DNA from: Candidatus Saccharibacteria bacterium
Lineage (GTDB): Bacteria; Patescibacteriota; Saccharimonadia; Saccharimonadales; Saccharimonadaceae
Direction: 5' to 3'
Assembly (NCBI GenBank): GCA_016432585.1
Contig: CP066696.1
Span: 1 to 64,000 of the forward strand
Length of the DNA stretch: 64,000 nt
The notes below the pieces were generated by a model. The model did no database searches, was not told where the DNA came from, and worked only from the letters and a program-made list of their open reading frames with translations. Positions 33,994 to 60,206 of this stretch are shown here, in pieces; position 1 is the stretch's first letter; each line of letters begins with the position of its first letter. The position numbers and the translations under genes were made by a program.

Positions 33994-34020
33994 TTAGCGG
34001 CTGTTGTCGCTAACTATTTT
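33989..34020. terminator. Hairpin terminator carrying both convergent stop codons
   Basis: AATAGTTAGCG (33989-33999) and CGCTAACTATT (34008-34018) form an 11-bp stem with an 8-nt loop, followed by TTTT on the plus strand. The plus-strand TAG (33991-33993) and the complement of the minus-strand TAA (33994-33996) both lie in the left arm, directly adjacent. Confidence 0.8.
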
Positions 34021-35115
34021 GCGGATTTTTGTAATAAATAATCCCTTGTCGAATCGCTTGGCTTTTCGGCGCAAAGTGCCGGGTAGGAACGTTGTCTGCT
34101 CGGCCTTTTGTATTGCCTCAGCAATAGCGTTAACGCTTTGCTCGTAAAACAATATGCCGCTTTCACCGTCTTGCACGATATCAAGTGCCCCTGCTTTTCC
34201 ATAGGTAATAACGGGTGCGCCAGCGGCAAGTGCTTCTACCTGTACGATTCCAAAATCTTCTTCGGCGGCATACATCCAGCCCTTGGCGTGATTGAGTGCT
34301 TTTTCAAGCTCGGCGTCTGATGCGTCGCCAAACCTATCGGTATAAAACGATACAGTAGGGCCTGCTATGGCCTCTAACTGGCCGTGTGCGGGACCGTTGC
34401 CAAAGACTTTAAGCGGGATGCCAAGCTTTGTACATGCAGCAACCACAAGGTCGTAGCGCTTGTAGGGGAGCTGTCTGCCCATGGTCATATAGTAATCACC
34501 ACGCTCGCGGGCGGGTTCGAACCTATCGACATCTACCGGCGGGTGAACGACCGTTGCTGGCTTGCCGTAATACTGTTTAATACGCTTTTGCGTCTCGGTA
34601 GAGTTGGCGATAAAGACGTCTACTTTTTGCGCGGCTTCGTAGTCTAGTTTGCGCTGGTGTGGTACGAACAGCGGAATAAGCAGGCGAATGATAGGGTCGA
34701 GTTTGCCATAGCCAGGGTTCTTTTTGTACTCCTCGTAGTGGCTCCAGTAGTAGCGCGCAGGGGTGTGACAGTACGAGATAATTACTTGGTCTTTACGGGT
34801 TTTGCGTATTTGGTTTGCGTTTAAGTACGAGCTGGTAATAATAATATCAAACTCGCTAAGGTCGAGATCTTGGAACGCTTTTACCTGAAGTGTAGGGAAA
34901 AGCTTGTACATTTTGCGGATTTTTTTAGGCAATTTTTGTAGCCAGGTTGTGCGGACATCCAGCTTTTTAAACTCTGGCAGTACGCGATCTTCGTCGTAAA
35001 TGGCGGTATAAATAGGTGCATCAGGAAATGCATTGTGCAGTTCGTAAACGACGCGTTCGGCTCCGCCCATAACAATTAAAAACTCAGCAACAATAGCAAT
35101 CTTAGGTGCTGGCAT
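33994..35115 (-). CDS. GT4-family glycosyltransferase
   Basis: A 373-residue GT-B enzyme: KIAIVAEFLIVMGGAERVV with the glycine-rich acceptor loop, SYCHTPARYYWSHYEEY, VVHPPVDVDRF, GRQLPYKRYDLVV and the donor E-x7-E in AAEEDFGIVQVEALAAGAPVI. This profile fits mannosyl- or related transferases acting on lipid-linked sugars. Its ATG overlaps the stop of the priming transferase (TAATG), so it probably adds the second sugar after priming. Confidence 0.9.
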   Translation of the reverse strand: MPAPKIAIVAEFLIVMGGAERVVYELHNAFPDAPIYTAIYDEDRVLPEFKKLDVRTTWLQKLPKKIRKMYKLFPTLQVKAFQDLDLSEFDIIITSSYLNANQIRKTRKDQVIISYCHTPARYYWSHYEEYKKNPGYGKLDPIIRLLIPLFVPHQRKLDYEAAQKVDVFIANSTETQKRIKQYYGKPATVVHPPVDVDRFEPARERGDYYMTMGRQLPYKRYDLVVAACTKLGIPLKVFGNGPAHGQLEAIAGPTVSFYTDRFGDASDAELEKALNHAKGWMYAAEEDFGIVQVEALAAGAPVITYGKAGALDIVQDGESGILFYEQSVNAIAEAIQKAEQTTFLPGTLRRKAKRFDKGLFITKIRKIVSDNSR

Positions 35116-40140: not shown

Positions 40141-40374
40141 CTATAGATAGAAATGTATTACTAAAACAGTAAGGTTTATCGCGAGTCCTGCAATTGCAAC
40201 AATTAAAAGCTTTATGTTATTTATGCGGTGCGACAAGATAGCACCCCTTGCACAAAAGGCGAGCCCTGCAATTGCAAGATACCATAGTAAGATAGACGCA
40301 AGTCCCAGGCTGGCGCCGAGGAGCGTAAAACTTTTACTTTCTTTTTCTGGATTCTTTGATGGTGCTAGTTGCAT
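40141..40374 (-). CDS. Small two-helix membrane protein behind the RHS gene
   Basis: A 77-residue protein with two hydrophobic helices (~18-42 and ~55-75) and a charged N-terminus ([12 protein letters not shown]). It looks like the DUF4190 type. AAGGAGAC stands 7 nt before the ATG, a strong ribosome site for this window, and the gene overlaps its upstream neighbour by 41 nt. That overlap and the operon position after the RHS gene suggest a partner role such as an immunity protein, which is inference only. Confidence 0.6.
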   Translation of the reverse strand: MQLAPSKNPEKESKSFTLLGASLGLASILLWYLAIAGLAFCARGAILSHRINNIKLLIVAIAGLAINLTVLVIHFYL

Positions 40375-40627
40375 TTTTATTGTCTCCTTTGGCTTTTTTG
40401 GTTCTTAGGTATGCAGTATATTGGTAAACGCCAATAGCCAGCATAAATCCTAGACACGTGACTAATAGTAGGGTGGCGTATTCACGCGCGTGTTGACGTC
40501 CGGGTCGCTCGACGTAATTATCGAAGAAGGGTGTGTACATAAGCATGACGAGGAGTGTAGTGCCGACTCCTATGAGTAGGGGTTTAGTGTATTTGCGTTT
40601 TAAATATTTTTTTGCGTTTTTTACCAT
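40334..40627 (-). CDS. Small membrane protein directly downstream of the RHS gene
   Basis: A 97-residue protein: basic start [16 protein letters not shown], helix [19 protein letters not shown], a ~20-residue loop, a second helix [20 protein letters not shown], and a very basic tail ending KESRKRK. Its start overlaps the RHS stop by 7 nt, so translation is coupled. This is the position of immunity genes in polymorphic-toxin loci; a membrane-located immunity protein would fit a membrane-acting toxin. No family is recognised. Confidence 0.62.
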
Positions 40628-43600
40628 TTGAAAATCCTTTGTATAGATGAGATGAAGTGTTTAACTGCTTTGACGATAGGTCTGTAAGCCTCTAAATAAA
40701 CATTCCTCGTTGTCTCCCCGGCATAATAACTGGTGATAGTCTTGACTAAGTTTTTAAGGGCTCTTTTTTGAACAGCCTTCTTTTTTACCGTTTTTACGGA
40801 AACTCTGTAGTTTCTCGTTTTTCCCGTATTTGACCCCCTCTTTATCTTACCAAAATCTCGCGCTGCTTTTGTTTTTCCTAAGAGCTTACCCCCTACTTTA
40901 TCAGTGATGACGGATACGGCCGCTGCGCCGGCTGCTTGACTCCAGCTTCCGCCCTCGTATCGTACTTGGGCTGCTGCGCTCGTAGCCCCTACGACTGTAG
41001 CGGCCGCCGCCACTCCGGCACAGACACCTGCTGTAGCGACTACACATGCTGCGAGCCCAGCGCCAGCAGCCACGACTCCAATAGTGTCGGCGTTTTGACC
41101 AACCCAGTGCCATGATTGTTGCGCTGCACTTTTTACGCTCCCCCATAAATCCCACATCCCGGTTAGGTCGTATCTGTTTACTGGGTCTGTAGGGTAAACA
41201 TAATCATTATCCACACCTCCCTCTACTGGATCTGCTGAGATAAACCGTCCCAAGGAGGGAATGTAGGCCCTGGCTCCCATCTGAATAGGTTCGAGAGCAA
41301 TGTCCGTTTCGCTGATTTTTTGGTGTTGTCCTACATATTGCCAAGAAGTGCCTGATGCAGTGTTTTGTGCTCTTGTAGTGCCGGCAACATACTCACCGAA
41401 CGGACCAGTTAAGTGTTTAGAAATTAACTCCCCACTGTTATTAACGGTTGCTGATACGTCACCATGAATGTTTGGAAGGCTGTAGACTTTATTCATGGCA
41501 TTGGTTTCTTGGGGAGAGATAGTGAGGAGCACATCTCCCGGGAGAGTTACGTATTTCTGTACAACATCTCCTGATTCGCTAAGTAGGGCGTCGGGAGTGT
41601 CCTCGCCCCCCGTAAAGGCATACTGTAAGTGGCTCTTTACGATGTTATTCTCTGAGGCTGTGCGCCCTATAATGCGACCCTGTACGTCGCGCACATAATC
41701 TATATTCTTTTTTTGTTCTTGATCAGTATTGTTTGAGCCTGTTTGAGCCGCCAACACTTCTTCAATTGAAGTGTTTCGTCCGCTAGCATCAAAACCAAAG
41801 TTTGTTTTCTGACTCGTGGCTCCAAGGCTGACTATATTACCCCTAGTATCATACTCTGGCGTGTCAATCTTTGAGTCTGAACTGTAGATGAGTCGGTCGG
41901 CCATATCATAGCAGTACGTAGTGCTCTGGCCATTAACGGTCGCTGTCGTTCGGTTACCATTTTTTGCTGCGTTAGGGTTATTGCCCGGCAGTAATGAGCA
42001 ACTTTCACCAGAATCTTCGAATCCGTATTCGTACACACTTTCACCTATTGTCGCAGAGGTTAATCGAGTAGCTCTATCGTAGGTGTACGATTTTGATACA
42101 TTGTTTTCCGTACCGTTCGTAATATCTCCGCTGGCTGAGTAGGTGACGGAATCATCGATGGTTGTTCCGTCGCTTAGCGTAAACGAGGTTCCGGACTCTC
42201 GAAGCAATTCATCACGCTGAATATCACTTAGCGATATGCCAGAAGGGTAGTCGACATTCTCCACTCGGCCGAACTGGTCATAGGTAACTGTCGCATAAGT
42301 GATGCTGTCGATGCTGTATGTATTTAGTCGATCATATTGATCGTACGTGTAGCTTTCATTGCCGAGAACGCTCGTTCGGGTTAGTAGTTTCCCTAACGCG
42401 TCATAGCTACTGTTCGTAATCTTTTCTTTAGCGTCAGTATATTTTACAACTTGACCAAGGATGTTGCTTTCGGTTGTTATTGTTCCGCTCGAATCGGTCG
42501 AACTTACTATGAGTGGATTTCCGTTTACGGCGTAGTTGTTGCTGATAGTACGACCGGGCATATTACCAACGGTAGGCACGGATGTGTTTATGATTCGCTC
42601 TCTGGCATCGAAGGTCACGCACATCCAAGGTTCATTGGTGTATCGGATAGCCGCAACAGCTCCAGAGTTATTGTATACGACCTCACTTTCACGGCCTAAG
42701 AGTGGTCCTGTGCTGTCAGGGTCCTGTTCAGTCTTCGATTTTATGAAACCGGCTTGCTTATGTGCTTCCACCTCTGGTGTACAGGGATTATCCCTCGTTT
42801 CGGATGAGCCGTAATATTGATAGGACGTTTTTGTTCCTCCAGCCGATGTCCTGCTTGTTTGTCGGAGGAGGCCTTCGCCAGGCTCCTCGTAGACGGCTTT
42901 ATTCTCATAAGCTAACCCTGTAGGGTCAAGGATTGATTTATCAATCGTCCCATATTCGGGTGATTTATATATGGTTCTTGTTTCAAGATTTCCGAGTTGT
43001 GAGTCGAACACAGTGGTTGACGTAGGAAGGCTGTAGTCGGGCGAGAGCTGATTGGAGAAAGTGGATGTTTCGGATTGACCCGGTGTCGTCAGATAAAGCT
43101 GAAGGCTAGCTGCCGTATTCGAGCCATGATAATGGTCGATTCGGATACGGTGATAGGTGTTGGCCGTGGTGTTATTATAAGGTGTTCCTGATACGGTTCG
43201 ATCACCACCACTAAGCGTTCCGTCACCCCATCCGTCTACATAGAGCTGGTCATCGATATAGAGACGAAAGCCGGCATCGCCTCTAACTTTGAAATTATAG
43301 TCGCCCACACCGTCAAGTTTAATTTTGCCGGTATAGCGGGCACCCCATCCGTCGGTTGAAGTTACAGGTGTGGTATTTGCCGTAAAGGATGTCGCGACGG
43401 GTGCTGTCGTGCTCCATATTGCAGTGCTGTTTAATTTTGGCGCTCTCAGGAGTTTTTTATTGTCATAGTATGCAACGCCTAGTCCGGTAAGTCCCTCATC
43501 ATATCCCGTCTTTACATGAGGGACATCACTCACGCGTGCAGTAATCGGCGTACGATCAGCGCCAAACCAGGTTGAGGGAGCAGGACCGTAGCCGTCAATT

Positions 43601-46600
43601 GGTAGATCATTATTGTCGTAAATCGTTGTTGATTTAAGCCCCTTTGGATCGGTCGTCGATAGGACTAAGTCCTTATCGGGATGCCACTCAATTTGTGACG
43701 TGAGATTGGCTAGATCCGTTTCCGAAGTTGTTCTGAATAAATTATCGTAGGTAATGCGCTTACTGAAGCCGTGAGGCTCCGAAGCGCCAACAACGTTCAT
43801 CGCTGTTTCGTTGTATTTATATGAGAATGTGCTTTCCAGGCGTGGCTGTTGATCTGTTGATGCGGGCGAAATAACTGATTGCACTCGTCCCAGTCCGTCG
43901 TAGTTGATTGTTGTAACTGCGCTGATATCATCGTTTCGTACTCCATAGGCTATCGCATCGTTTGCTAGCATGTCTCGGTAAGAATTAATGCGTCCGAACG
44001 CGTCGTAGCCAAAGTCTTCATAGGCATCGCCTGGCTGTACGATTCTAGAAAGGTTACCCTGGTTGTATTGGAAGAGGGTCTTTTTTCCATCTGTCGTTTT
44101 GAAGGCACATAGCATGCCGCTTGGTGCGGTATCAAAACCACTCAGTATTTGGCATTCGCTGTCACCAGAATAATGGAGGGTTCCGTTGCGTGATTCGTCT
44201 ACTCCGTCCGATATCTTTACGAGGCGGGAAGGATTTCCGGCATACTCGTATTTAAGTGCCGCAGGTTGGCGATCATCCTCAGAGGCAGTAACAGACGTAA
44301 GCTTGCCCTCGGCGTCAAAGATGTATGTCTTGCCCTCGGTATCAAGAACTGTGTAGGTGCTGTCGTCGTTTCGTGTGAGAACTGCTTCTTGGTCTTTTGG
44401 CGCGACATAGCCATTATTTTTCCATGTATATTCGTATGTTTGTCCGGTGCTGTCCGAAAGGATTGCAGCATTCGATGAAACTTGTAGGCGTTCATAATTA
44501 ATGTTTCCATCGCCAAGCCCCATCTCCCACCCGTTCGGAAGGATATTGGCTTTTGGTGCTAGCCAGGTAATAGGCATTTCTTGTGCGGCAAGTCCTGGGC
44601 CTTGCATAAGCAATCGGAAGTGCGCGTTGCCGATACCTTCGTAGTAGTCAACGGTAATTGGTATTTGCTGTCCGGCGGTAAGGTTGACAGGCGTGCCCCA
44701 GTGGTCGCCTCCGATATAAGGTGCCCAGCTATCGTAGATAGTTTGGTCTGCGCCAAAGGCGCCAATGCCAAGTTTAATCTTCATGCCGTCATCGCCGTTT
44801 GCTCCAAGTGTGTAACTTCCAGACGTAGGAACGGTGAGGTAGCCCTTCCAGCGAACGAGAAAGTCATCTGAAGGTAAGCCAGGTGAGGCTGCGCCTGCAC
44901 CCCATACGAAGTTTATCTTACTGTCGTTTCTTGCCATAAGTAGGCGATTTGGATCGTTCGGATTGGTTGGGAATGTTTTTGTGCCGTCATCTTTGTAGTA
45001 GCGCCCCTCAAGGCCGTATTTTGTTGCGGTTTCGCGAGCGCCAGTGTCAAACCAGCTGGCAGGCACTACTTGCTGCGGAACAGAACCCTGAACAAGAAGT
45101 TGCATGGTTGCTACTCCAGTAAATTCGGTTGCCTCTACCGTTATAGGAGTTGCTTTCCCGGCCTCAAGATGAATGCTTGACGCTCCAAAACCAGTACCGT
45201 TCGGGTATTTATTGAGGTGAAGCTGATTGTCGATATATACATTACAGCCGTCGTCGACTGCGCACCCAAAGGTGTAGTCGCCAGTCTGAGGGGCGGTGAT
45301 ATAACCAGTCCAGCGCGCTGAGAAGTTATCTTCCGCTACGACGCCCGCGGATGGACTGCCATTGGCCCATAAGAAATCTATATTAGGGTCGACGCGAGTG
45401 GCTACGGGTGCTCCACTGCGTGTCGTGTTGTTCCAGTATTGGCCGACAAGCCCCGGGCTCGACATGGCGGGCGAGTTGTAATCTAGACTAACGCCTATGT
45501 TTCCACCGAGCGCCGAGATATTGTGAGTACCGGTACTTGTGGTTGCGTTACCTGTTGCAAGGTCGACATTGATTGGTCCAAGTTGCTCGTACGCCTGGGT
45601 GCTGTCTTTTCCTGTACGCATGTCTACTTTAAACGATCTTACCCAGTTAGGGTCTCTTTGTGCATACCCCTTGGTGTAGGTGTGCCAGTAGTATGTTCGA
45701 CCGTCTTGAAGAATGTTATCGGGAACTGTCCACTGAGACGAGCTAACCCAGCCCGAGTTAATGACTGCGCCAGTTTCGGCGTCGGGGTTTGTCGTGACGC
45801 GGAAGTAATACTTAACAGCATCACCGTCGGTATCGGTGACGTTATTGACGCGAAGGCTTGGCTGTGTGGTAACAACAGTGCCGCCATTTGCAGGAGATGC
45901 CGCAGTTGCCATTGGGGTTGGCGTATCGTAAACAACCGTTGCTTTCATGTCGTAATAGGGCTTGTAGGTGAGAGACGAGCCTTCTTGACCGCGGATACTC
46001 CACCAGCTTGCATAGTCATCGGCATCAACAAGCGCCTTTAACTTAGCGGTGAAATCGATATTAAAGTTTGTTGAAGCGCTGGCGCTGCCTGCCGTTGAAC
46101 CGGTACAGTTAAATCCTGTGGAACAACTGGCGAGTCCCATGGTGATTGTTTTTGTGGTTGTTGTGCCACCGATTCCAGACTTGAACCATCCGTAAAGATC
46201 GGCGTTAAGAATAGTTTTGTTTGTTAGTTCGGTGTAGGGGATATTGATGTAACTTCGCCAGTGTTTCCAGCCGTTATCGTAGAGTGACCCTGTGTTGGCA
46301 TAGCAGTTGCTTGCATTGCAGGCAAAGCCATCCGACCTATACATTTTGTAGACGATTTGGCTTTGCTTAGTAAATGTAGGGTCGATTCGCATAGGAAATG
46401 CTGAATCGGGCTGATTCTTAAACCAAGTAGAGTCGAGCTTAACGGAGATGCCAGTTGCTGTTGGTGTTTGGGAAACTCGTGGTTCGTTTATAACACCTCG
46501 GCCGTTTACATCAAGGGTGAGAGAGCTAAAGCTGTATTCATCGGAAATACCTTCGATGGTTAGTTCGCCTACGTTTTTAGGATGTTTAATAACTGTGCCA

Positions 46601-47334
46601 CCTTCGACCGCAAAATCAAAGGATGTTTTCGAGGTTCTATTCTTAACGACAATGATTTCTTTTATTGATTCACCACGTAGTTCGTATTCCAGATCGACAC
46701 CAGGCCAAGCGTCTTTATAAACGACAGTGGCTTCATCTTTTCGCTCCGGTGTTACGTTGTTTACGCCTACAGGCTTAACGGTAATATTCTTTCCATCGGC
46801 ATCAAAAGAGATTCCGTCAGAGAGAGGTCGTAGCTGGGCAGACATCTTGCCTGCCTTACCCTTAAATCCGGTTTTGCCTGATTCTAGAGTTTGCGTGAGG
46901 GCGTTATCGATTGTCTTCCACTCGCTACCATCTTTGTAATTTTGCTGACGAGTGTTGAAGTCGAGAGTTTTTGTCCCATCGTCATTTAAGAATGTTTTTG
47001 TATAAGCAGTTCTTTTTTCGGTGAGTTCACGAACCTGTTTGCGCTCGCGTTGATTATCGGTCTTTTGATCGGTGGTAAGATTTCCAAGAGCCGCAGGATC
47101 GACGTTTTTTAGACTCGGAGCGGCGTTCGTATTACTATCTGATTCGAGCGGGGTAACACTTTGGCGTACGAATGTCTTTGGGTTTGAATTGGCGAAGAGC
47201 GCCATGAGCTGCGATGGCTGCGCCAAGGTAAATACCATCAGTAGCGCAAGAACAAAAAGAGCGCCGGGCTTTACTAATTTTTTGAACCTTCGAGGTTGGG
47301 AGAGTTTAAGCACAGCATGGCCCCTTGCTTGCAT
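40621..47334 (-). CDS. Giant secreted RHS-repeat/PA14 protein with variable C-terminal domain
   Basis: About 2237 residues. The signal segment is [21 protein letters not shown]. The order is: N-terminal beta-rich region (~30-480), fibronectin-like segment ([20 protein letters not shown]), two PA14 domains ([23 protein letters not shown]), many YD/RHS repeats (for example [10 protein letters not shown]), and a third PA14 ([11 protein letters not shown]) inside the RHS part. The core-associated region ([33 protein letters not shown]) is followed by a ~172-residue tail. The tail is hydrophobic then strongly basic ([16 protein letters not shown], ending IQRIFKW). In polymorphic toxins this tail is the effector. 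TTG at 47358 is an alternative start; ATG 47334 is preferred. Confidence 0.87.
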
Positions 47335-47380
47335 TTTTGTATGAACAGCAAATAGCAATGTCTGACACGCCTGAATCCCC

Positions 47381-47482: not shown

Positions 47483-48322
47483 TTACGTAGTCGTTGTTGT
47501 TTTGGGCTTCGCGTCGTTAGTGGTGGGTGGTTTTCGAGTGGTCTTTTTAGTTACAAAGCTTATCACTCTACCGATGAGGGCAAGTAGGAGTATGAGTAAT
47601 CCAGATATTGCGATCCAGTAATAAACCTCCCCAATGACGACGCCCAATTCCGTGGCAATATCGACAGGCAGAAAGCCCAGGGCGCTATCACCATTTTTTG
47701 GCGGGTTAGTTAACAGTAGACCTAATAGACTGCCGGGTACGCCAACGATAAACAGTTGTAGTCCAAAATTAGCCAATCGGCCCCATCTAGCGCTGAAGTA
47801 AATAACACCGATAAGTAGCAGCGCGGAGAGGGTAGAAAATATTCCGAGAAGTCCGTTTAGCGAATTGTGGGTTTGTTTGGTGAATAGGCGAAGGGCCGAA
47901 GCGTCGTTTATGAACTTTTGCTCTTCCTTGGGGCTTGTGGCAAAACGCTTGGCTGTCGCTTCGATACCGTCGTTGTAGAGTATTGTCGTGAGGGGAGTGA
48001 ATACTTTTAGCTTTATTTCAGTAGCAGAAAGAGAAAGGTCTTGTTTTGTAATAGTTACCTCGGGCATCGTTGGAAGTGGACGTATAACGCCACCTTGTTT
48101 TTTCAGAGTTCGTTTCATCTCGTCTATGTCAGTCAGGGAGTCGTCGCGTATAAACATGCTACCAATTGCCAGTGCTGCAATTTTTGGACCACGATTTTCG
48201 TCGGTTAATTTGACAGCCGTCGCTAGTAGTAGCGTGACGAACAGGCAGAAGACGAAGAGTAGGCCGCAAATCCATTTAGCGTCAACGTGCCAATAGGGGC
48301 GTACGGAGGGATATAGCTTCAT
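47483..48322 (-). CDS. Polytopic membrane protein of unknown function
   Basis: A 279-residue protein: helix WICGLLFVFCLFVTLLLATAV (~17-37), then a ~125-residue extracytoplasmic domain (RGPKIAALAIGSMFIRDDS ... VTITKQDLSL). Three more helices follow (~160-180, ~190-205, ~235-260), and then a Thr/Lys/Pro-rich tail ending in a run of threonines. Minus-strand TATACT (48336-48331) ends 8 nt before the ATG. It lies between the subtilase and the RHS gene on the same strand, so it may share their process, but nothing in the sequence names its function. Confidence 0.62.
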   Translation of the reverse strand: MKLYPSVRPYWHVDAKWICGLLFVFCLFVTLLLATAVKLTDENRGPKIAALAIGSMFIRDDSLTDIDEMKRTLKKQGGVIRPLPTMPEVTITKQDLSLSATEIKLKVFTPLTTILYNDGIEATAKRFATSPKEEQKFINDASALRLFTKQTHNSLNGLLGIFSTLSALLLIGVIYFSARWGRLANFGLQLFIVGVPGSLLGLLLTNPPKNGDSALGFLPVDIATELGVVIGEVYYWIAISGLLILLLALIGRVISFVTKKTTRKPPTTNDAKPKTTTTT

Positions 48323-48420: not shown

Positions 48421-50496
48421 TTATTTCTCGCGGAGTGACGACAAGGGGAATCCTAAGTGATAGTTATAATTTGTGTCGTGCTCGGATCGTAAGTACCACA
48501 CCCCATTTAAATATGTCTTGGTTGTAAAACGTATGACACGTCCTTTTAGGAAGGTTTCGCCACTCTTCTGTGCTGTTAAAAGACTGGTTTTTTGCGTGTC
48601 GTAGGCAAGTTTCATGTCTCTTGGCTGAACTAGCGGTGTGTAGCTCGGCATTTCGCGTAACGCGCTAAAAGGAATGCCGAAATGGAAACTGTTATTAGTA
48701 TCATGCTCGGATCGCAAATACCAAACTCCATTGACAAGTGTCTTGGTAGTAAAGCGTACAATACGCTCCCTTGAAAGCACCTCGCCACTCTTTTCGCCCG
48801 TTAAAAGATTGGTTTTTTGTGTTGCTTCCGAGAGCCACATTTGCCGGGGATCTTGGAGTGGACTGTAGGTGGGCAAGGTTGTGTCGACAACAGCTTTCAT
48901 GTTTACTCTGCCGAAGCCGTACTCTTTTGTGTAAGACGCACCTTCCATGCCCGCAACTCTATCTGCACTTTGCGCTATTGTATCGCGAATCTCTGCGGGA
49001 GTGAGAGTTGGGTTTTTGCCGATAAGTACCGAGGCTATTCCAGATATATGCGGTGCTGAAAAGGACGTTCCATTTGCGCCGAGGCTACTGCTAGAGTAAT
49101 TGTTTGATTTGTCTGGTGCTAAAATTGTTGCAACGCCCGCTCCGGGTGCCATGACATCGAGCCCGGCTCCATAGCTTGAGAACGAGGCGCGCGTATCGCT
49201 AGAAGTCGTTGCTCCTGTGGCTAATGCGTGGACAGAGCGCCCCGGGTAGCATACGCCCTCTGTACCGCCATTGCCCGCGGCTCCTACGATAATAATGCCG
49301 GCCGCCTTCGCCGATGCGAGCGCGTCCTCCAAAAGCTGATCGGTAACCGTACAATCTCCATTAGTGTCATATACGGCAAGGCTCAGGTTGATAACGTCTG
49401 CGCCCATTTGCGTGGCGTATTCGACAGCCGCCGTAATAAGTGCCGAATTACCCCATCCGTAGCCGTCCAAGGCACGAAGGCTCATAATTTTAGTGTTCCA
49501 GTCTATACCTGCAATCAGATTGCTGTTGTTGCTAGATGCTGCTGCTATGCCAGCAACGGATGTTCCATGACTTGTGTAGCAGGCGCTTTCGAATGCCTGG
49601 CACGAGCCATTAAAATGATTGCGGTTCAGCTCGTTTTGGTGAGCTGGGCTATCACATGAATACGGTTGCGGGTCATTATCGTAGGTAATGTATTCTGGGT
49701 AGGTTGAGCTTTGGTATGTTGTTGGGCTTGCAAAGTTAGGACAGGCTGCGCTGTCGCCGCGCCAGCCTCCCATAAAATCCCAGCCTTTAGTATCATCTAT
49801 AAACCCATTGCTATCGTCGTCAATATTGTTACATGATTTGTCGATAGGAATGCTTTGGGTTGTACAGTTTGGTGCAGGACCTTCAGTAGAGCTAGAACCA
49901 ACCTCACCAGAATTTACCCAAGCTCTTTGCGTAGGAAGGTCGGATTGCTGGCAGGGGGTTTGCGTTGGGCAATCTGGTGAAGCCGCCCAGCCTTGGCTAA
50001 AAAGAACCCCGGAATCGATAATTGCGATAGTGGTTTCTTGTGACCCCGTAGCTGTGTCCCATGCCTGTGGAGCATTAATTTTTGTGAGGTTCCACTGAGA
50101 ATTATTGGCGAACAGAGGATCGTTTGGTGTAATAGCTGGCTTGTAATTGTAGTTGGGAAATATCTTAAAACCAGAGTCGGCTTGCATCGTGCGTTCAACA
50201 GAGTTTAGCGCAGAAGTAGAGCCGGTAACCGTAATTAATCCCCCTTTTCCCGGTAAGGGTGTAACCCTCGTTTCTTGCAAACCACTTTGCTGTACGGCCA
50301 AGCGAGACTTAGCGAGATTACTCGTACGGATGACGCTGCTGGCCACCTGTTTTAGATTGGCGGTACTAGACGTTTTTTGAAAAGCATTGGCGTAAAGCGC
50401 CCAACCAAGTGAGATAGCGAGTATTAGTAATAGTCCTACTACAGAAGTAAGTAGGACTTTATTTTTTATATGTGAAATTGCAGAGTGTAATGTCAT
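48421..50496 (-). CDS. Secreted subtilisin-like serine protease (S8) with two surface repeats
   Basis: A 691-residue exported protease. The N-terminal hydrophobic signal is VLLTSVVGLLLILAISLGW; a ~110-residue propeptide region follows. The S8 domain has Asp in AIIDSGVLF, His in SHGTSVAGIAAA, the oxyanion Asn in GAAGNGG and Ser in NGTSFSAPHISG, so it should be active. The last ~148 residues are two copies of the ~75-residue repeat also found in the lysozyme-like protein at 17.4 kb. The ATG at 50526 is only 2 nt from TATAAT (50534-50529), upstream of the likely transcription start; ATG 50496 is preferred. Confidence 0.9.
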   Translation of the reverse strand: MTLHSAISHIKNKVLLTSVVGLLLILAISLGWALYANAFQKTSSTANLKQVASSVIRTSNLAKSRLAVQQSGLQETRVTPLPGKGGLITVTGSTSALNSVERTMQADSGFKIFPNYNYKPAITPNDPLFANNSQWNLTKINAPQAWDTATGSQETTIAIIDSGVLFSQGWAASPDCPTQTPCQQSDLPTQRAWVNSGEVGSSSTEGPAPNCTTQSIPIDKSCNNIDDDSNGFIDDTKGWDFMGGWRGDSAACPNFASPTTYQSSTYPEYITYDNDPQPYSCDSPAHQNELNRNHFNGSCQAFESACYTSHGTSVAGIAAASSNNSNLIAGIDWNTKIMSLRALDGYGWGNSALITAAVEYATQMGADVINLSLAVYDTNGDCTVTDQLLEDALASAKAAGIIIVGAAGNGGTEGVCYPGRSVHALATGATTSSDTRASFSSYGAGLDVMAPGAGVATILAPDKSNNYSSSSLGANGTSFSAPHISGIASVLIGKNPTLTPAEIRDTIAQSADRVAGMEGASYTKEYGFGRVNMKAVVDTTLPTYSPLQDPRQMWLSEATQKTNLLTGEKSGEVLSRERIVRFTTKTLVNGVWYLRSEHDTNNSFHFGIPFSALREMPSYTPLVQPRDMKLAYDTQKTSLLTAQKSGETFLKGRVIRFTTKTYLNGVWYLRSEHDTNYNYHLGFPLSSLREK
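48424..48867 (-). repeat. Two tandem ~75-residue protein repeats, same family as at 17.4-18.7 kb
   Basis: The units begin YSPLQDPRQM and YTPLVQPRDM and share TQKT, LLT, KSGE, IRFTTKT, NGVWYLRSEHDTN, GIP/GFP and S-LRE. Spacing of PR, K, YLR-x-x-HDT and LRE matches the six repeats in the lysozyme-like protein. Confidence 0.88.
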
Positions 50497-50615
50497 ATTT
50501 TTTATTTTATATACAAGGCCTATCATTTATTATATCACTACTTATAACAAAGCCGGGTCTGGTAGAAGGGTACTAAGATGCTCATGTGAGCGAATTGCGC
50601 TATACTTTTAAGCAG

Positions 50616-54089: not shown

Positions 54090-57000
54090 CTAGAATCCGA
54101 ACACTTTCTGTAGTGAATCCAGGATAACGGTCAGGACGCTATCGGATGCACGGCTTATGATTGCTGATTGGGTTTCGCCTTTGCCTTCGTTGGCGGCGCG
54201 GTCTTTAGAGAGGGGCTGGATGCTGTAGACTTTTGATGTTGGAAGGTCGGAGACAATAACGATATGCTCGGTTCCGAGCTGACCGTCTTCGGCGGTTTTG
54301 TTATTAAATACAGTGACATTTGAACCCTCGGCGTAGGCCACTTGGCTGCTGGCGGGCTCGTCGGTACGCCACGATACGATTACCTGGCCACGAGCTTCGG
54401 CGCCTGTTCCGCGGATAGACGATTCAATAACGATATTTGATATTTTTGGCGGTCGTGTGTCGAGTGCCGTCTTGAACTGCTGGCGATCTGATGTAGCGAG
54501 GTTGCCCCCCGGATCGCGGCTTTGCGCCACGAGGAAGTAGATGCTGTCGTCTTCTAGATTGCGAAGCGTGAGCTCGTGTTCGGTGACAAGTTTGGCGTCT
54601 TGAATATCGGTTCCGCCCGTACCTACTTTTCCGTAGGTAACAAGCGAAGTAGAAGGAACGTTGGTTGTCCAGCTCACCTTTTGTGTACTGGTTGGCTGTC
54701 CAGGAACAGGTTGGAATCGTAGATTGGCAACACGTGGTCGTGCTGGTGTAGTGAACGAGGCAATACTTCCGTCGTATTCGTTGCCTTCGTTGTCGAATGC
54801 AACAAGTTTATAGAAGTATTTTGCGCCGTCATCGAGGCCGTCGAGCGCGACCGAATAGGTCGATTCACTGGTTGAGGTATTGATGCTTTGTAGGCCTCCA
54901 AAACTCTCGCTTTTACCGTAGTAGATATCGACTCGCGAGGCATCTTTTGAAGTAAATTCTACGACTGCGCTTGAGAGGCTGACCTTTAGTGTTGAGATCT
55001 CTTTTAGTGTTGGAGCGGGCGCTGTGCGGAATGTGTATTCTTGGCTGACACCTGTGTTACCGTCTTCGTCGGTCCATTTTGCAACCAGGTAGTAAGTTGT
55101 TCCTGCACTTAGGTTGGTAAGGTCGATTTGATGGGCGCTGGTTTGGTCGGAAATTGCGATCTCTGAAGAGTTGTATTTACCGCTTGATGTACCAATGGCA
55201 ATTTTAGAATCACTTGGACGATCAGTGCTCCAGCGAACAGTTGCCTTGCGGGTTGTGATATTTGAAACGGAAGGATCTGCAACAAGCAGTGCTGGTGAAG
55301 TAAACTTGCCTGTTGGTGTTTCGCTAACGACACTGCTGTTCGCCCCGCAATTATTGGTGCTGTCGCATGCTGCAATGCGATAGTAATATTTATTTTGCGA
55401 AAGGCCCGCGTCGATATATGTTGTGCTAGAGCTGCTGCCGACAAAGCTGAATGTCTCGTTGTTCGAAGAGCGATAAACGCGGTAGTTTGCGATACCTGCG
55501 CCGGTATTTCCCGGAATGTCCCAGGTAAGCGCAAGGCGCCAGTTGCTCGTAGTTTTAATTGATACGTCGACGATATCAACGTTTAGGGGCATACCTGGCG
55601 AAGGAGTATTGGCGCTAAATTGTGTGGTTGCGTAATCGGCGTAGTTGATATTGCCCGACTCGTCTTTAGCGACCACATATAATGTATTTTCACCTGGTTG
55701 TGTAGCGTAGGCTGCGGCACCAAGACTGGTTGTTCCGCCGCTCGTAAAGGTACAATTGCTAGCAGAGGGTGCCGCGTTTATAACGTAACAATAGGTGAGT
55801 GTATTTGCATCTCCTACGTATGTTTGCGGGGCATCCCAGCTAAATGCAAACGAGTTGGTTGTGCTGGACGATGGAGTTGCCTGTACGTTCTGTGGTTCGC
55901 TTGGAGCGCCTGCAGTGTTGATTTTTAATGCGGCAGTAGCGTAGGTTGTCGAAACGTTACCCGCCGTATCCCACGTTCGGAAATAGACAGTATTAACACC
56001 CTCACTGATATTGGTATAGTCGGGGGTTGGCAGTGTCCCGTATGAACCGTCGTTTGTAAGAAGATCGCCGCTGTCGCCAGTACCTGTATGGCTGTCGCCA
56101 TACCAGTCACTTGTGCCTATGCGATATTGAAGACCGGCTATTCCCGCGTTGGCGTCGCTTGGTGCGCCGGCGCCTGTGGTTGGCCAACTAAGGGTGACGT
56201 TTTTTGTATTTATAAAGCCAGAGGGAACAGTGATGTAGGTTGGGTTGGTCGGCTTTGTATTGTCGAAACGGAATGAGAACTGTGCGGACTGGGGCGAGAT
56301 GTTGCCTGCGGCGTCAATCGTTTTGATGGTGAAGTAATAAGGCGTGTCGCTTGTTGTTAGGGCCTCTTCGAGAAGTCCGTTTGTATCGAGGTGTGTGTCG
56401 GATACGATAAACTGACAGTTATCGCCAGTTGCAATAGGGCTGGTTCCAAGGAGACCTTTGGTAGTAATAGGATCTGCGGTCGATTCGTGACCCAGGTAGG
56501 CACAGTAGCCTTTTATTCCCGATTCGTTATCGACGCCTGCTGTCCAGGTAAAGTACGGCGAGCTACCATTAGTCCATCCATCAACAGTAAGATCCGTTCC
56601 GCCACTTGCTTTCTGAGCAGCCAGCGAACTAGCCCCGGCAAGGGGTGGAACGATGTCGGAAACACCTTCTAGTCCAACGCCATCAAGTGCGACCTGCTGA
56701 TACCCGTTGCTTTGTATAATAGCTTGCCAGGTTATACCACCGAATGTGACGGGTAGTTCACTAATGTGGTCGTTGATAATGGCTATTGGGTTGGCAGATG
56801 ATATGTTCGGTGAGGCGCTCCACTGCGTTCCGTTCCAATAATTCCAATTAGTTCCGCCATCGGTCGATAGGCGATAGGTGATTGATCCGCCATTTAATGA
56901 TTCTTGCGCTGAAAACTCTTGCCAGTTCCATACGCCACTTTTACGAACGGCATTTGCAAGCGTTACTGTTTGCGGCTGTGAGGCATATGGTTGTGTCGTA

Positions 57001-60000
57001 AAGGCTGTCCTGGCGGAATCGCTAATGCGCACTTCGTCGATCATGCCCTTGAAATAACCCTGAGCCCAGCCTGCCTCGGATGCGCCAAACGTCGAACCGA
57101 TAAGAAGTGGTTGAGGGTTATTGGGCATGGACAGTGAGACATTGGTCTGACTATTCAGTTCGCCATCGAGGTAGAGCTTCATTGTTGTGCCATTGTAGGT
57201 GGCAGCGATATGATGCCAGTCGGTATTTTGCGTGGTGCTTGTACTTTGAAGATAGCCGTTGTCACCATACGACCATATCGCGGCGTCGGCATTGGCAGTA
57301 TTACCGAGACCCGCGTATAACTTACCTTTGTAGACACTAAAGCTATAGACCATTTCGACGGTATTTGATGCCCAGCTAGAGTTAATGCCGCTGCCACCCA
57401 TTTTTCCCCAAGCGCCGTTGCTGTATTCCCATACCTCACCGTCGCCCGCTGTGTTTCCGAGCGCCGCATAGAACTTACCATTATAGGTTGTCATAGAACG
57501 GACCTGCTCGTATTGGCCGTCGAGCCAGCTACCGTTTACGTCATCGCCACCAATCTTTGTCCATGTCGAACCGTTATATTCCCATATTTCGGCATCGGCC
57601 GTGGTATTTCCTAGCCCTGCGTAAAGTTTGTCGTTATAGATTTGCATTGATTCGACTTGTTCGAGACTTGCGCTCCAGCTACCGGCGACGCCATCGCCAC
57701 CAACCTTCGACCAAGCGCTACCATTCCATCGCCACACCTCGGCGTCGCTTGCAGAGTTTCCAAGCCCGGCGTATAGATTGCCGCCGTATACTGTTAGCGC
57801 ACTGACTCGCTCGTAGTTTGCTGTCCAGCCGCTATTAATACCATCGCCACCAACCTTCGACCAAGCGCTACCATTCCATCGCCACACCTCGGCGTCGCTT
57901 GCGCTGTTGCCGATTCCTGCATAAAGGTCACCATTAAGGTTAGCGAGGCTGTAGACTTCTTCGAACCCTGCTGCCCAGCTACTGTTTAGTCCATCGCCAC
58001 CAATCTTTGTCCATGTCGAACCGTTGTATTCCCACACCTCGGCGTCGCCTGCGGTTGTGCCTAGGCCTGCGTATAGTTTGCCACCCTCGGCCACGAGTGT
58101 TAAGACGTCTTCGTAAGTGGTTGCGGTCCAGCTACTATTGATTCCTTGGCCCCCTACAATATCCCAGGCGGAGCCGTCGTAGCGCCATACCTGTGCATTG
58201 CCAGCCACAATATTACCAGTTCCGGCATAGAGGTAGTCGCCGTAAACGGTCATCGACTCTATATTTTGCATGTTAAAGTAGCCCCAACTGTGGTTGATAT
58301 AGCCGCCACCGATACGTGTCCAGGCCGTACCATTCCAACTCCAAGATTCGGCGTTTGTGGTAGCACCCGACAGGCCGGCGTAGAGTGTACCGTTACTATA
58401 GGACAGTGTTTGTACGTTTGTGTGGGTATTGGTAAATCCGCTATTTAGTCCATCACCGCCAATCTTTGTCCACGAAGTGCCATTCCATCGCCACACCTCG
58501 TTGTCACCAGCTGTTAGGCCAAGTCCAACATATATATTAGTGCCGTCATTGGTTATGTCGTAGATCATCTCGTACGACGATGCGTCCCACGACGCCCCAA
58601 CGGCATCACCGCCAATTTGCGTCCACGCTGTCCCGTTCCATCGCCAAAGTTCGGCCTCGCCAGCTGTTGTACCTAGTCCGGCGTAAAGGTTGCCGCCAAA
58701 ATGGTGAAGAGTGTAGGCGTATTCGTAGGTAGAAGTGCCCCATGAACTATTTAGTCCATCACCGCCAATTTGCGTCCAGGTTGTTCCGGTAAGTCGCCAA
58801 ACGTCGCCATCTCCCGCGGTATTACCAAAGCTAGCGTATAAAGATGTTCCGTCGTTAACGAGATTATAAACCCCTTCGTAGCCGGTAGGAAAAGCGTTGT
58901 AGGGAACGCCAATGCCGAAACCACCGACCCGCGTCCAGCTGGTGCCATTCCATCGGTATATTTGCGCATCGTTTGCGCTAAGGCCTAATCCAGCGTATAA
59001 ATTACCACTCATGACGGTCATGCTCTGGACACTTTCAAAGGTATTTACCGCCCAGCCGCTATTTATGCCATCGCCACCAATCTTTGTCCACGAGGCGCAG
59101 TTTGTGGTGGTGTTACAGCTCCATACCTCGGCGTCTCCGGCGGAAAGGCCAAGGCCCGCATAGAGCGTAGAGCCATTAAGCGCCATAGAGGTCACAGATT
59201 CGAATGTCTGATCGGCCCAGCTGTCGTTTTTACCATCGCCACCAATTTGCGTCCAAATCGTGCCGTCCCATCGCCATACCTCGGCATCGCCAACAGCGCT
59301 GCCTAGTCCGACATAAAGATTTGCGCCCACAGCTACCTGCGAAGTAATGCTCATTTTTCCGTTAAGGTCCCAGCTACCGCGAATATCGTTGCCGGCTTTT
59401 TGTGACCACTGCGTTGCTGACGAGTTTTCTAGTTCGTAGGTAGCTTTGCCCGTTTCGTGGTCGTAGTAGAGTTTATAAGAACCTTTGTCTATAATGCCTT
59501 GACGATTATTGTGACTACCGGCGCTAAGGGGTTCGTCTAGCTTTGTCCAGGCCTCTAGGGTATTCTCTTGCGAGAGTGATAGCGATGCGGAATCGCTTGC
59601 CTCGACGTGCGAATTTACTCCGTTAAATACAAGGCTGTTATTTAAAATACCTGCAGCACTAGATGAAGCGCCATTGTTGCTACCCGCGTTATTGTGCGCC
59701 GAGCTGTCCGATGCAGTTGAGCTGGATGTTTCGTCGAGGTGAAATAGTGCTTTTGTGTGAACGTCGCTGGTGTAGTTTTGTGCCTTCAGGCGCACGCTGC
59801 CATCTGATATCTCAAGGCCATTTGCCAGGTTGTAGTCACTTGTGTTTGCGAAGTTCCAGGTGTCGGATAGGTCCGAAGCGGCCATGGCTTTTTGATACGA
59901 AACCAAAACGGCACTACCCACCAGAAGAAGATAAATACCAAGAATAGCGTAGTGAATATGGTGATGGTGGTTCCATTGATGCCATTTTTTATACCATGCA

Positions 60001-60206
60001 AGCCGACCGGTCAAGTGAATGTGGGGTTGGTGAGCGAGGTGGCGGTGGGCTATTCTGTAGGTTCGGATTGTGTGACGAAATGAGTATCGGATTAGCTGGC
60101 GAGTTATGACCAAGAGTCTTCGTAGGAAGGGGCGGGACTTACGCCAGAGTATCTTAAAGATGGCTGTCGCCCTACGTACTATGTGTGTAAAACGGTTTAC
60201 GCGCAT
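54090..60206 (-). CDS. Giant surface protein: LamG domain interrupted by 14 propeller repeats, then FnIII-like domains
   Basis: A 2038-residue protein. Residues 1-85 are unusually Arg/His-rich and cytoplasmic; one membrane or signal segment (~86-105) ends near KAMAASD. Residues ~150-270 look like the first half of a LamG (concanavalin-like) domain (TKALFHLDET, NSLVFNGVNSHVE, LEAWTKLDEP, GIIDKGSYKLYYD). Then come 14 repeats of ~50 residues (286-983: LYAGLG, DAEVWRWNG, W-x-KIGGDG-x-NSSW). The second LamG half follows (WHHIAATYNGTTMKLYLDGEL, GMIDEVRISD). The rest is FnIII/Ig-like domains. No catalytic motif or LPxTG is seen; it is probably an adhesin. AGGTGAT precedes the ATG. Confidence 0.85.
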   Translation of the reverse strand: MRVNRFTHIVRRATAIFKILWRKSRPFLRRLLVITRQLIRYSFRHTIRTYRIAHRHLAHQPHIHLTGRLAWYKKWHQWNHHHHIHYAILGIYLLLVGSAVLVSYQKAMAASDLSDTWNFANTSDYNLANGLEISDGSVRLKAQNYTSDVHTKALFHLDETSSSTASDSSAHNNAGSNNGASSSAAGILNNSLVFNGVNSHVEASDSASLSLSQENTLEAWTKLDEPLSAGSHNNRQGIIDKGSYKLYYDHETGKATYELENSSATQWSQKAGNDIRGSWDLNGKMSITSQVAVGANLYVGLGSAVGDAEVWRWDGTIWTQIGGDGKNDSWADQTFESVTSMALNGSTLYAGLGLSAGDAEVWSCNTTTNCASWTKIGGDGINSGWAVNTFESVQSMTVMSGNLYAGLGLSANDAQIYRWNGTSWTRVGGFGIGVPYNAFPTGYEGVYNLVNDGTSLYASFGNTAGDGDVWRLTGTTWTQIGGDGLNSSWGTSTYEYAYTLHHFGGNLYAGLGTTAGEAELWRWNGTAWTQIGGDAVGASWDASSYEMIYDITNDGTNIYVGLGLTAGDNEVWRWNGTSWTKIGGDGLNSGFTNTHTNVQTLSYSNGTLYAGLSGATTNAESWSWNGTAWTRIGGGYINHSWGYFNMQNIESMTVYGDYLYAGTGNIVAGNAQVWRYDGSAWDIVGGQGINSSWTATTYEDVLTLVAEGGKLYAGLGTTAGDAEVWEYNGSTWTKIGGDGLNSSWAAGFEEVYSLANLNGDLYAGIGNSASDAEVWRWNGSAWSKVGGDGINSGWTANYERVSALTVYGGNLYAGLGNSASDAEVWRWNGSAWSKVGGDGVAGSWSASLEQVESMQIYNDKLYAGLGNTTADAEIWEYNGSTWTKIGGDDVNGSWLDGQYEQVRSMTTYNGKFYAALGNTAGDGEVWEYSNGAWGKMGGSGINSSWASNTVEMVYSFSVYKGKLYAGLGNTANADAAIWSYGDNGYLQSTSTTQNTDWHHIAATYNGTTMKLYLDGELNSQTNVSLSMPNNPQPLLIGSTFGASEAGWAQGYFKGMIDEVRISDSARTAFTTQPYASQPQTVTLANAVRKSGVWNWQEFSAQESLNGGSITYRLSTDGGTNWNYWNGTQWSASPNISSANPIAIINDHISELPVTFGGITWQAIIQSNGYQQVALDGVGLEGVSDIVPPLAGASSLAAQKASGGTDLTVDGWTNGSSPYFTWTAGVDNESGIKGYCAYLGHESTADPITTKGLLGTSPIATGDNCQFIVSDTHLDTNGLLEEALTTSDTPYYFTIKTIDAAGNISPQSAQFSFRFDNTKPTNPTYITVPSGFINTKNVTLSWPTTGAGAPSDANAGIAGLQYRIGTSDWYGDSHTGTGDSGDLLTNDGSYGTLPTPDYTNISEGVNTVYFRTWDTAGNVSTTYATAALKINTAGAPSEPQNVQATPSSSTTNSFAFSWDAPQTYVGDANTLTYCYVINAAPSASNCTFTSGGTTSLGAAAYATQPGENTLYVVAKDESGNINYADYATTQFSANTPSPGMPLNVDIVDVSIKTTSNWRLALTWDIPGNTGAGIANYRVYRSSNNETFSFVGSSSSTTYIDAGLSQNKYYYRIAACDSTNNCGANSSVVSETPTGKFTSPALLVADPSVSNITTRKATVRWSTDRPSDSKIAIGTSSGKYNSSEIAISDQTSAHQIDLTNLSAGTTYYLVAKWTDEDGNTGVSQEYTFRTAPAPTLKEISTLKVSLSSAVVEFTSKDASRVDIYYGKSESFGGLQSINTSTSESTYSVALDGLDDGAKYFYKLVAFDNEGNEYDGSIASFTTPARPRVANLRFQPVPGQPTSTQKVSWTTNVPSTSLVTYGKVGTGGTDIQDAKLVTEHELTLRNLEDDSIYFLVAQSRDPGGNLATSDRQQFKTALDTRPPKISNIVIESSIRGTGAEARGQVIVSWRTDEPASSQVAYAEGSNVTVFNNKTAEDGQLGTEHIVIVSDLPTSKVYSIQPLSKDRAANEGKGETQSAIISRASDSVLTVILDSLQKVFGF
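57258..59351 (-). repeat. Fourteen tandem ~50-codon repeats (beta-propeller-like)
   Basis: Repeats run from protein residue 286 to 983, with lengths of 50-55 residues and a shortened last unit of about 31. The DNA period is about 150 bp. Bases 57691-57752 and 57841-57902 are 62-bp identical copies, evidence of recent repeat homogenisation. Fourteen units would fit two seven-bladed propellers. Confidence 0.88.

What the first reader, a model, noticed from the sequence alone, without database searches (positions are those of the whole stretch)
40141..47334. Candidate contact-dependent toxin locus: giant RHS/PA14 protein followed by two tiny membrane proteins
The RHS core ends with the typical ADP-x-GG and DLTG motifs, then a 172-residue tail that switches from hydrophobic to strongly basic. 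The next two genes (97 and 77 residues, two helices each) are coupled by 7-nt and 41-nt overlaps, the place for immunity genes. Three PA14 domains, one inserted among the RHS repeats, could bind host glycans. In an epibiont this could be a weapon or a tool against host or rival cells. A membrane-active tail with membrane immunity proteins would be coherent.
Basis: partly seen in the sequence, partly recalled or inferred. Interest (0 to 1): 0.65.

Follow-up and report, generated by a model that had tools for sequence, protein, structure and literature searches.

The report
Rhs toxin with membrane immunity genes
A tiny Saccharibacterium that probably lives attached to other bacteria carries a giant secreted protein of a known toxin type (Rhs), whose last 178 residues are a swappable toxin cartridge of an undescribed family, followed by two small membrane proteins that look like its antidote; the same toxin scaffold is shared with Actinobacteria, the phylum on which its cultured kin live.

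Summary
The locus is a Rhs-type polymorphic toxin: signal-peptide-like start, PA14 domains, a YD-repeat shell (AlphaFold pLDDT mostly above 90; best PDB matches are T6SS Rhs shells, including Tse5) and the autocleavage aspartate pair. In 44 relatives the last invariant residue is G2067 of 'YDLTG'; after it nothing is conserved. 105 tails fall into 66 clusters, several of them known toxin domains (GIY-YIG, HNH, Tox-REase-7, Ntox17/21; a guanyl RNase). Similar tails come with similar downstream genes, and orphan tail cassettes occur in tandem. The window's tail belongs to a small undescribed family (seven members: five saccharibacterial genomes and one Actinokineospora); all six with a downstream gene have a 2-3 TM protein there (others 24 of 96). 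ORF77 homologues lie only beside this tail or an Rhs remnant. Best analogue: pore-forming Tse5 with two-TM Tsi5. Membrane action remains inferred: many tails with soluble neighbours also carry a hydrophobic stretch. The core tree mixes Saccharibacteria with Actinomycetota (saccharibacterial clade rejected, p-AU 4e-52). Prior art: Starr et al. 2018 noted one such gene. New member of a known kind, with a new tail family.

The parts
40621..47358 (-). Rhs/PA14 polymorphic toxin gene, 2245 aa from TTG 47358 or 2237 aa from ATG 47334; N-terminal signal-peptide-like segment (residues ~25-56 in TTG numbering)
45124..45462 (-). PA14 domain 1
   Evidence: 80.7 bits
44620..45021 (-). PA14 domain 2
   Evidence: 55.1 bits
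43066..43488 (-). PA14 domain 3, inside the YD-repeat shell region
   Evidence: 59.6 bits
41158..44220 (-). YD-repeat shell region modelled (residues 1047-2067)
   Evidence: alignment of 44 relatives; model; Foldseek to T6SS Rhs shells; profile match to 8h8a, 8cp6, 8uxt
41155..41403 (-). Rhs-associated core end; invariant aspartates D2043 (41230-41232) and D2064 (41167-41169); predicted self-cleavage just after 'YDLTG'
   Evidence: D2043 aligns with Tse5 D1141
40624..41157 (-). variable C-terminal tail, 178 aa: hydrophobic helical part then basic part (22 K+R, 3 D+E in the last 83)
40334..40627 (-). ORF97, 97 aa, two TM segments, overlaps the toxin gene by 7 nt; first candidate immunity gene
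40141..40374 (-). ORF77, 77 aa, two TM segments, overlaps ORF97 by 41 nt; second candidate immunity gene; clear homologues only beside Rhs modules

Best explanation
A Sec-exported Rhs polymorphic toxin with its immunity genes. The YD repeats fold into a hollow shell that holds the last ~178 residues. The aspartate pair D2043/D2064 cuts the tail free just after YDLTG. PA14 domains on the outside may bind a surface ligand. After contact the freed tail reaches the target cell and most likely acts in its cytoplasmic membrane (depolarisation or pore, as Tse5-CT does). ORF97 and/or ORF77, two-TM proteins in the producer's membrane, neutralise it. Shown: modular architecture, tail exchange at G2067, tail-neighbour linkage, orphan cassettes, shell fold by model. 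Inferred: cleavage, delivery, toxicity, membrane target, which ORF is the antidote.
For: Invariant columns stop at G2067; 47 before or at it, none after. The mean share of the commonest residue falls from 0.5-0.7 to 0.09-0.23. 94 tails align at 7% mean column identity with no invariant column. 105 tails make 66 clusters; even at 65-80% core identity only 4 of 175 pairs share a tail. Known toxin domains in relatives' tails. Tail similarity goes with downstream-gene similarity: 14 of 49 pairs against 8 of 5,380. Tandem orphan tail cassettes. Shell model pLDDT mostly >90 and Foldseek to 8qjc, 7q97, 8cp6. D2043 aligns with Tse5 D1141; the D1141A variant inserts and permeabilises poorly and does not outcompete (PMC10684867). 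Membrane class: the window's tail family has neighbours with two or more TM in 6 of 6 against 24 of 96. ORF77 homologues at E<1e-10 in 4 of 295 genomes, all beside this tail or an Rhs remnant. Precedents Tse5/Tsi5 and EsxX/ExiCD.
Against: No toxicity data. The tail matches no family and its own fold is not predicted (pLDDT 41). No glycine zipper. Of 57 other tails with a hydrophobic stretch, 35 are followed by a gene without TM, so hydrophobicity alone does not show a membrane target. ORF97 has no clear homologue, and ORF77 is absent beside the G074 tail. No dedicated delivery machine was identified.
Confidence: 0.72

Rival explanations
1. Same polymorphic toxin, but the hydrophobic half of the tail is only an entry (pre-toxin) segment and the basic last ~80 residues are the toxin, acting in the cytosol, for example on nucleic acid; the two-TM proteins protect by blocking entry.
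For: Hydrophobic stretches also precede nuclease-type tails, e.g. L061/G179 with three of them before a REase-like domain. Different toxins share such a stretch (L036 with L039). L084 shares only the first half of the window's tail. The last 83 residues hold 22 K+R.
Against: Every downstream gene found for this tail family is a membrane protein, whereas the nuclease-type tails checked (GIY-YIG, RNase, REase-like) have soluble neighbours. The C-terminal part is weakly conserved, with no recognisable catalytic signature.
Confidence: 0.2
2. A non-toxic surface adhesin: Rhs and PA14 repeats attach the epibiont to its host, and the tail and small ORFs are unrelated passengers.
For: PA14 domains and probable surface export; no toxicity shown.
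Against: Tail exchange at the Rhs cleavage point, known toxin domains in relatives, tail-neighbour linkage and orphan cassettes.
Confidence: 0.05
3. A decayed or misassembled locus.
For: Start codon ambiguous (TTG or ATG); promoter-like sites at chance level.
Against: One open frame of 2256 codons in a single 952-kb contig, aspartate pair intact, both small ORFs open.
Confidence: 0.02

Closest known systems
Secreted Rhs/PA14 toxin gene of 'T. rhizospherense' (Saccharibacteria; Starr et al. 2018, PMC6031116)
   Same: The paper reports a possible secreted toxin gene of 2487 aa with Rhs/YD repeats, a PA14 domain and a neighbouring immunity gene. CP025011 (Saccharibacteria bacterium YM_S32_TM7_50_20), which I take to be that genome, gave L074, a 2494-codon frame, as a core homologue.
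   Different: Another tail (no match to the window's tail family) and a downstream gene of 124 aa without TM.
Tse5/Tsi5 (RhsP1) of Pseudomonas aeruginosa
   Same: Rhs shell, aspartate that releases the C-terminal toxin (D1141 aligned with D2043), ~150-residue membrane toxin, two-TM immunity protein.
   Different: Tse5 is a T6SS cargo with a PAAR-like N-terminus; here a signal-peptide-like start and PA14 domains. Tail similarity was not tested. Two small membrane genes instead of one.
WapA-type Rhs toxins of Gram-positive bacteria
   Same: Exported surface protein with YD repeats, variable C-terminal toxin and downstream immunity gene (own knowledge; WapA toxins in PMC12704120).
   Different: Three PA14 domains; no sequence comparison with WapA was made here.
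EsxX/ExiCD of Staphylococcus aureus
   Same: Membrane-depolarising toxin countered by a pair of membrane proteins that also occur as orphans.
   Different: T7SS LXG toxin with glycine zipper; the window's tail has none and the genome has a single FtsK-type ATPase, so no T7SS motor is apparent.

Membership tests
Rhs polymorphic toxins | YD/RHS repeats ending in an Rhs-associated core domain | tested here: met
   PF05593 and TIGR03696 over cut-off
Rhs polymorphic toxins | YD repeats form a closed shell | tested here: met
   AlphaFold shell pLDDT mostly >90; Foldseek E ~1e-31 to T6SS Rhs shells. Global TM-scores are only 0.25-0.42, so fold class only.
Rhs polymorphic toxins | aspartate pair for self-cleavage at the core end | tested here: met
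   D2043 and D2064 invariant in 44 relatives; D2043 aligned to Tse5 D1141. Cleavage itself not tested.
Rhs polymorphic toxins | conserved core, exchangeable C-terminal tail | tested here: met
Rhs polymorphic toxins | cognate immunity gene directly downstream, changing with the tail | tested here: met
   ORF77 linkage. Protection not tested.
Rhs polymorphic toxins | toxicity of the tail to bacteria | not testable with these tools
   no experiment possible
Tse5-like membrane-depolarising Rhs toxins | two-TM immunity protein | tested here: met
   ORF97 and ORF77 each two TM; 6 of 6 family members with a downstream gene
Tse5-like membrane-depolarising Rhs toxins | tail homologous to Tse5-CT | not tested
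   no direct comparison; tail has no Pfam or NCBIfam hit
Glycine-zipper membrane toxins (EsxX, TelE, TspA) | (G/A/S)xxxGxxxG or GxxxGxxx(G/S/T) | tested here: not met
   none in the window's tail
T7SS LXG toxins | LXG domain and EssC/EccC motor | tested here: not met
   no LXG hit; one FtsK-type ATPase only, with one FtsK domain

The most novel reading that the evidence does not exclude
Rhs/PA14 toxin genes and their toxin-immunity cassettes have passed between Saccharibacteria and the Actinobacteria on which cultured Saccharibacteria live, so this membrane toxin and its two antidotes take part in the conflict or mutual tolerance between epibiont and host.
Probability: 0.3. Interest if true: 0.75.

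Novelty: new member of a known kind. Interest (0 to 1): 0.5.

Why it matters
How Saccharibacteria kill, feed on or coexist with their bacterial hosts is open. This locus gives a concrete weapon-and-antidote pair, of a kind present in about a tenth of the family's genomes, with a testable target (the membrane) and a clear evolutionary link to the host phylum: the Rhs/PA14 scaffold is interleaved with actinobacterial genes, and the same tail type occurs in Actinokineospora. If immunity genes in hosts match toxins in epibionts, they could help predict who can live on whom.

Tried and rejected
Tail-alone structure prediction failed (pLDDT 41), so no fold search was made with it. Glycine-zipper idea rejected: none in the window's tail, no clear enrichment in its family. 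T7SS delivery suggested by the upstream S8 protease (mycosin model at 135 bits, cut-off 279) rejected: only one FtsK-type ATPase in the genome. No relative of the tail in plasmids or IMG/VR contigs. Synteny: most neighbours of the window locus are not found beside the three nearest relatives; the gene at 33994-35115 has homologues near two of them. Promoter scan: 20 matches against 17.7 expected, uninformative. The Fisher value is nominal because pairs are not independent. Hydrophobicity of the tail as sole proof of membrane action rejected. ORF97 could not be shown homologous to the other first-position genes; its C-terminal likeness to the G030 gene comes from the stretch overlapping the start of ORF77.

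Full report
Observation. The three minus-strand genes are as described: the giant gene at 40621-47334 (ATG; an in-frame TTG at 47358 would add 8 residues), ORF97 at 40334-40627 and ORF77 at 40141-40374, overlapping by 7 and 41 nt. Residue numbers below count from the TTG. The protein has a hydrophobic N-terminal segment after a basic stretch, as signal peptides do, three PA14 domains, YD repeats and an Rhs-associated core domain over NCBI's cut-off. The window is the first 64 kb of a single-contig genome of 952,504 bases, in which this is the only Rhs core and the only PA14 gene.

What it is. Among 198 genomes of the family, 22 have a homologue (a few of these match over a PA14 domain only), so the gene is accessory. 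A scan of one genome per species with the core end returned 77 loci, in Saccharibacteria and Actinomycetota. In an alignment of 44 relatives over residues 1047-2245, 47 columns are invariant up to G2067, the G of YDLTG, and none after it; the mean share of the commonest residue per block of 50 columns falls from 0.71 just before to 0.41, 0.23, 0.18 and 0.09. Ninety-four tails align at 7% mean column identity with no invariant column. Of 105 tails, 51 are singletons and the whole makes 66 clusters; of 175 pairs with 65-80% core identity only 4 share a tail. Tails in relatives match GIY-YIG, guanyl-specific ribonuclease, HNH, Tox-URI2, Tox-REase-7, Ntox17, Ntox21 and a bacterial phospholipase A2. 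Short orphan genes made of a core end plus a new tail stand in tandem behind the main gene in several genomes; G030 has three behind its main gene, four tails in all. This is the anatomy of a Rhs polymorphic toxin.

The shell. The model of residues 1047-2245 has pLDDT mostly above 90 up to the core end and below 50 from D2043 on. Its best matches in the PDB are T6SS Rhs shells, Tse5 among them, then teneurins and TccC. These matches are strong in E-value, but the global TM-scores are low (0.25-0.42), so I claim the fold class and no more. The profile of the core end aligns D2043 with D1141 of Tse5 (chain position 1094 plus 47, my count). In that paper the D1141A variant is used to stop autoproteolysis; it inserts into lipid poorly and does not outcompete sensitive cells (PMC10684867). 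The second aspartate, D2064, is also invariant.

The tail and its neighbours. The window's tail family has six full members: the window, G074, L075 (G022), two tandem cassettes in L068 (G514) and L071 of Actinokineospora globicatena; a seventh, the fourth tail of G030, is shortened. At E <= 0.001 no further full member was found in some 390 genomes each from the family and the class, nor in 349 from the order of Actinokineospora, where three others match only part of the profile. On the core tree its three members lie apart, three changes for three rows, so the tail moved independently of the core. Where a downstream gene was found, it has two or more TM segments in 6 of 6 members, against 24 of 96 other tails (none was found beside L071). 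Across all loci, pairs with similar tails have similar downstream genes in 14 of 49 cases, other pairs in 8 of 5,380; two of those eight lie within the window's tail family. ORF77 homologues at E<1e-10 occur in 4 of 295 genomes: the window, G022 and G030, which carry this tail, and G026, where an intact orphan gene stands just before a cut-off Rhs core fragment at a contig end, with no such tail in view. That is what one expects of an antidote kept after its toxin was lost. In G030 the start of that gene is 85% identical in DNA to the window over 60 bases while the surroundings are not, which suggests exchange of a short module.

How it probably works. The nearest worked-out case is Tse5: a Rhs shell carries a ~150-residue toxin that inserts into the membrane and depolarises the cell, and Tsi5, with two TM regions, protects. 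EsxX of Staphylococcus is countered by a pair of membrane proteins, ExiC and ExiD, a precedent for two small membrane genes. The rival is that the hydrophobic half of the tail only serves entry: 35 of 57 other tails with a hydrophobic stretch are followed by a gene without TM. The membrane neighbours favour a membrane target, but not firmly. Delivery is unknown: the signal-peptide-like start suggests Sec export, no T7SS motor is apparent, and a T6SS was not searched for.

Epibiont and host. A tree of the last 420 core columns interleaves saccharibacterial genes with those of Actinokineospora, Allorhizocola, Kribbella, Streptomyces and Arcanobacterium; the tree that holds the eight saccharibacterial rows together is rejected (p-AU 3.7e-52). 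Cultured Saccharibacteria grow on Actinobacteria (abstract of PMC10633639). Exchange between the two phyla is therefore likely; its direction, and whether hosts are the targets, are not shown.

Novelty. Starr et al. (2018) noted one such gene with an immunity gene in a saccharibacterial genome, and Rhs toxins are well known. What is added here: the family across Saccharibacteria and Actinomycetota, the tail exchange measured, an undescribed tail family with two-TM partners, an orphan antidote, and the interleaved tree.

Noticed in passing
window 54090-60206 (-): Second giant gene, 2038 aa, weak matches to OmpL47-type and MXAN_2561 models; probably another surface protein.
   Followed up: no
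window 48421-50526 (-): Subtilase (S8) with two similar C-terminal repeats ('VRFTTKT..NGVWYLRSEHDTN'), just upstream of the toxin and a 279-aa membrane protein at 47483-48322; not a T7SS mycosin by cut-off.
   Followed up: partly
L066 / L047 (G030:C9): Main gene and three successive core-end-plus-tail cassettes, most of them followed by a small gene: a store of exchangeable toxin tips.
   Followed up: partly
L170 (G026:C13:148310-148585): Orphan ORF77-type gene next to a truncated Rhs core fragment at a contig end.
   Followed up: yes
L041 1523-1924 and 1999-2400 (orientation): Two near-identical 133-aa genes with one TM segment in tandem behind another tail type: a duplicated antidote.
   Followed up: no
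L042 (G177:C2): Tandem tails with a shared start and Gly-rich, bacteriocin-like ends, followed by small genes with 2-3 TM segments.
   Followed up: no
L063 (SEAL01000032.1): Record titled Chloroflexi, but its contig is the one of G038, a genome of the window's own family: probably mislabelled.
   Followed up: partly
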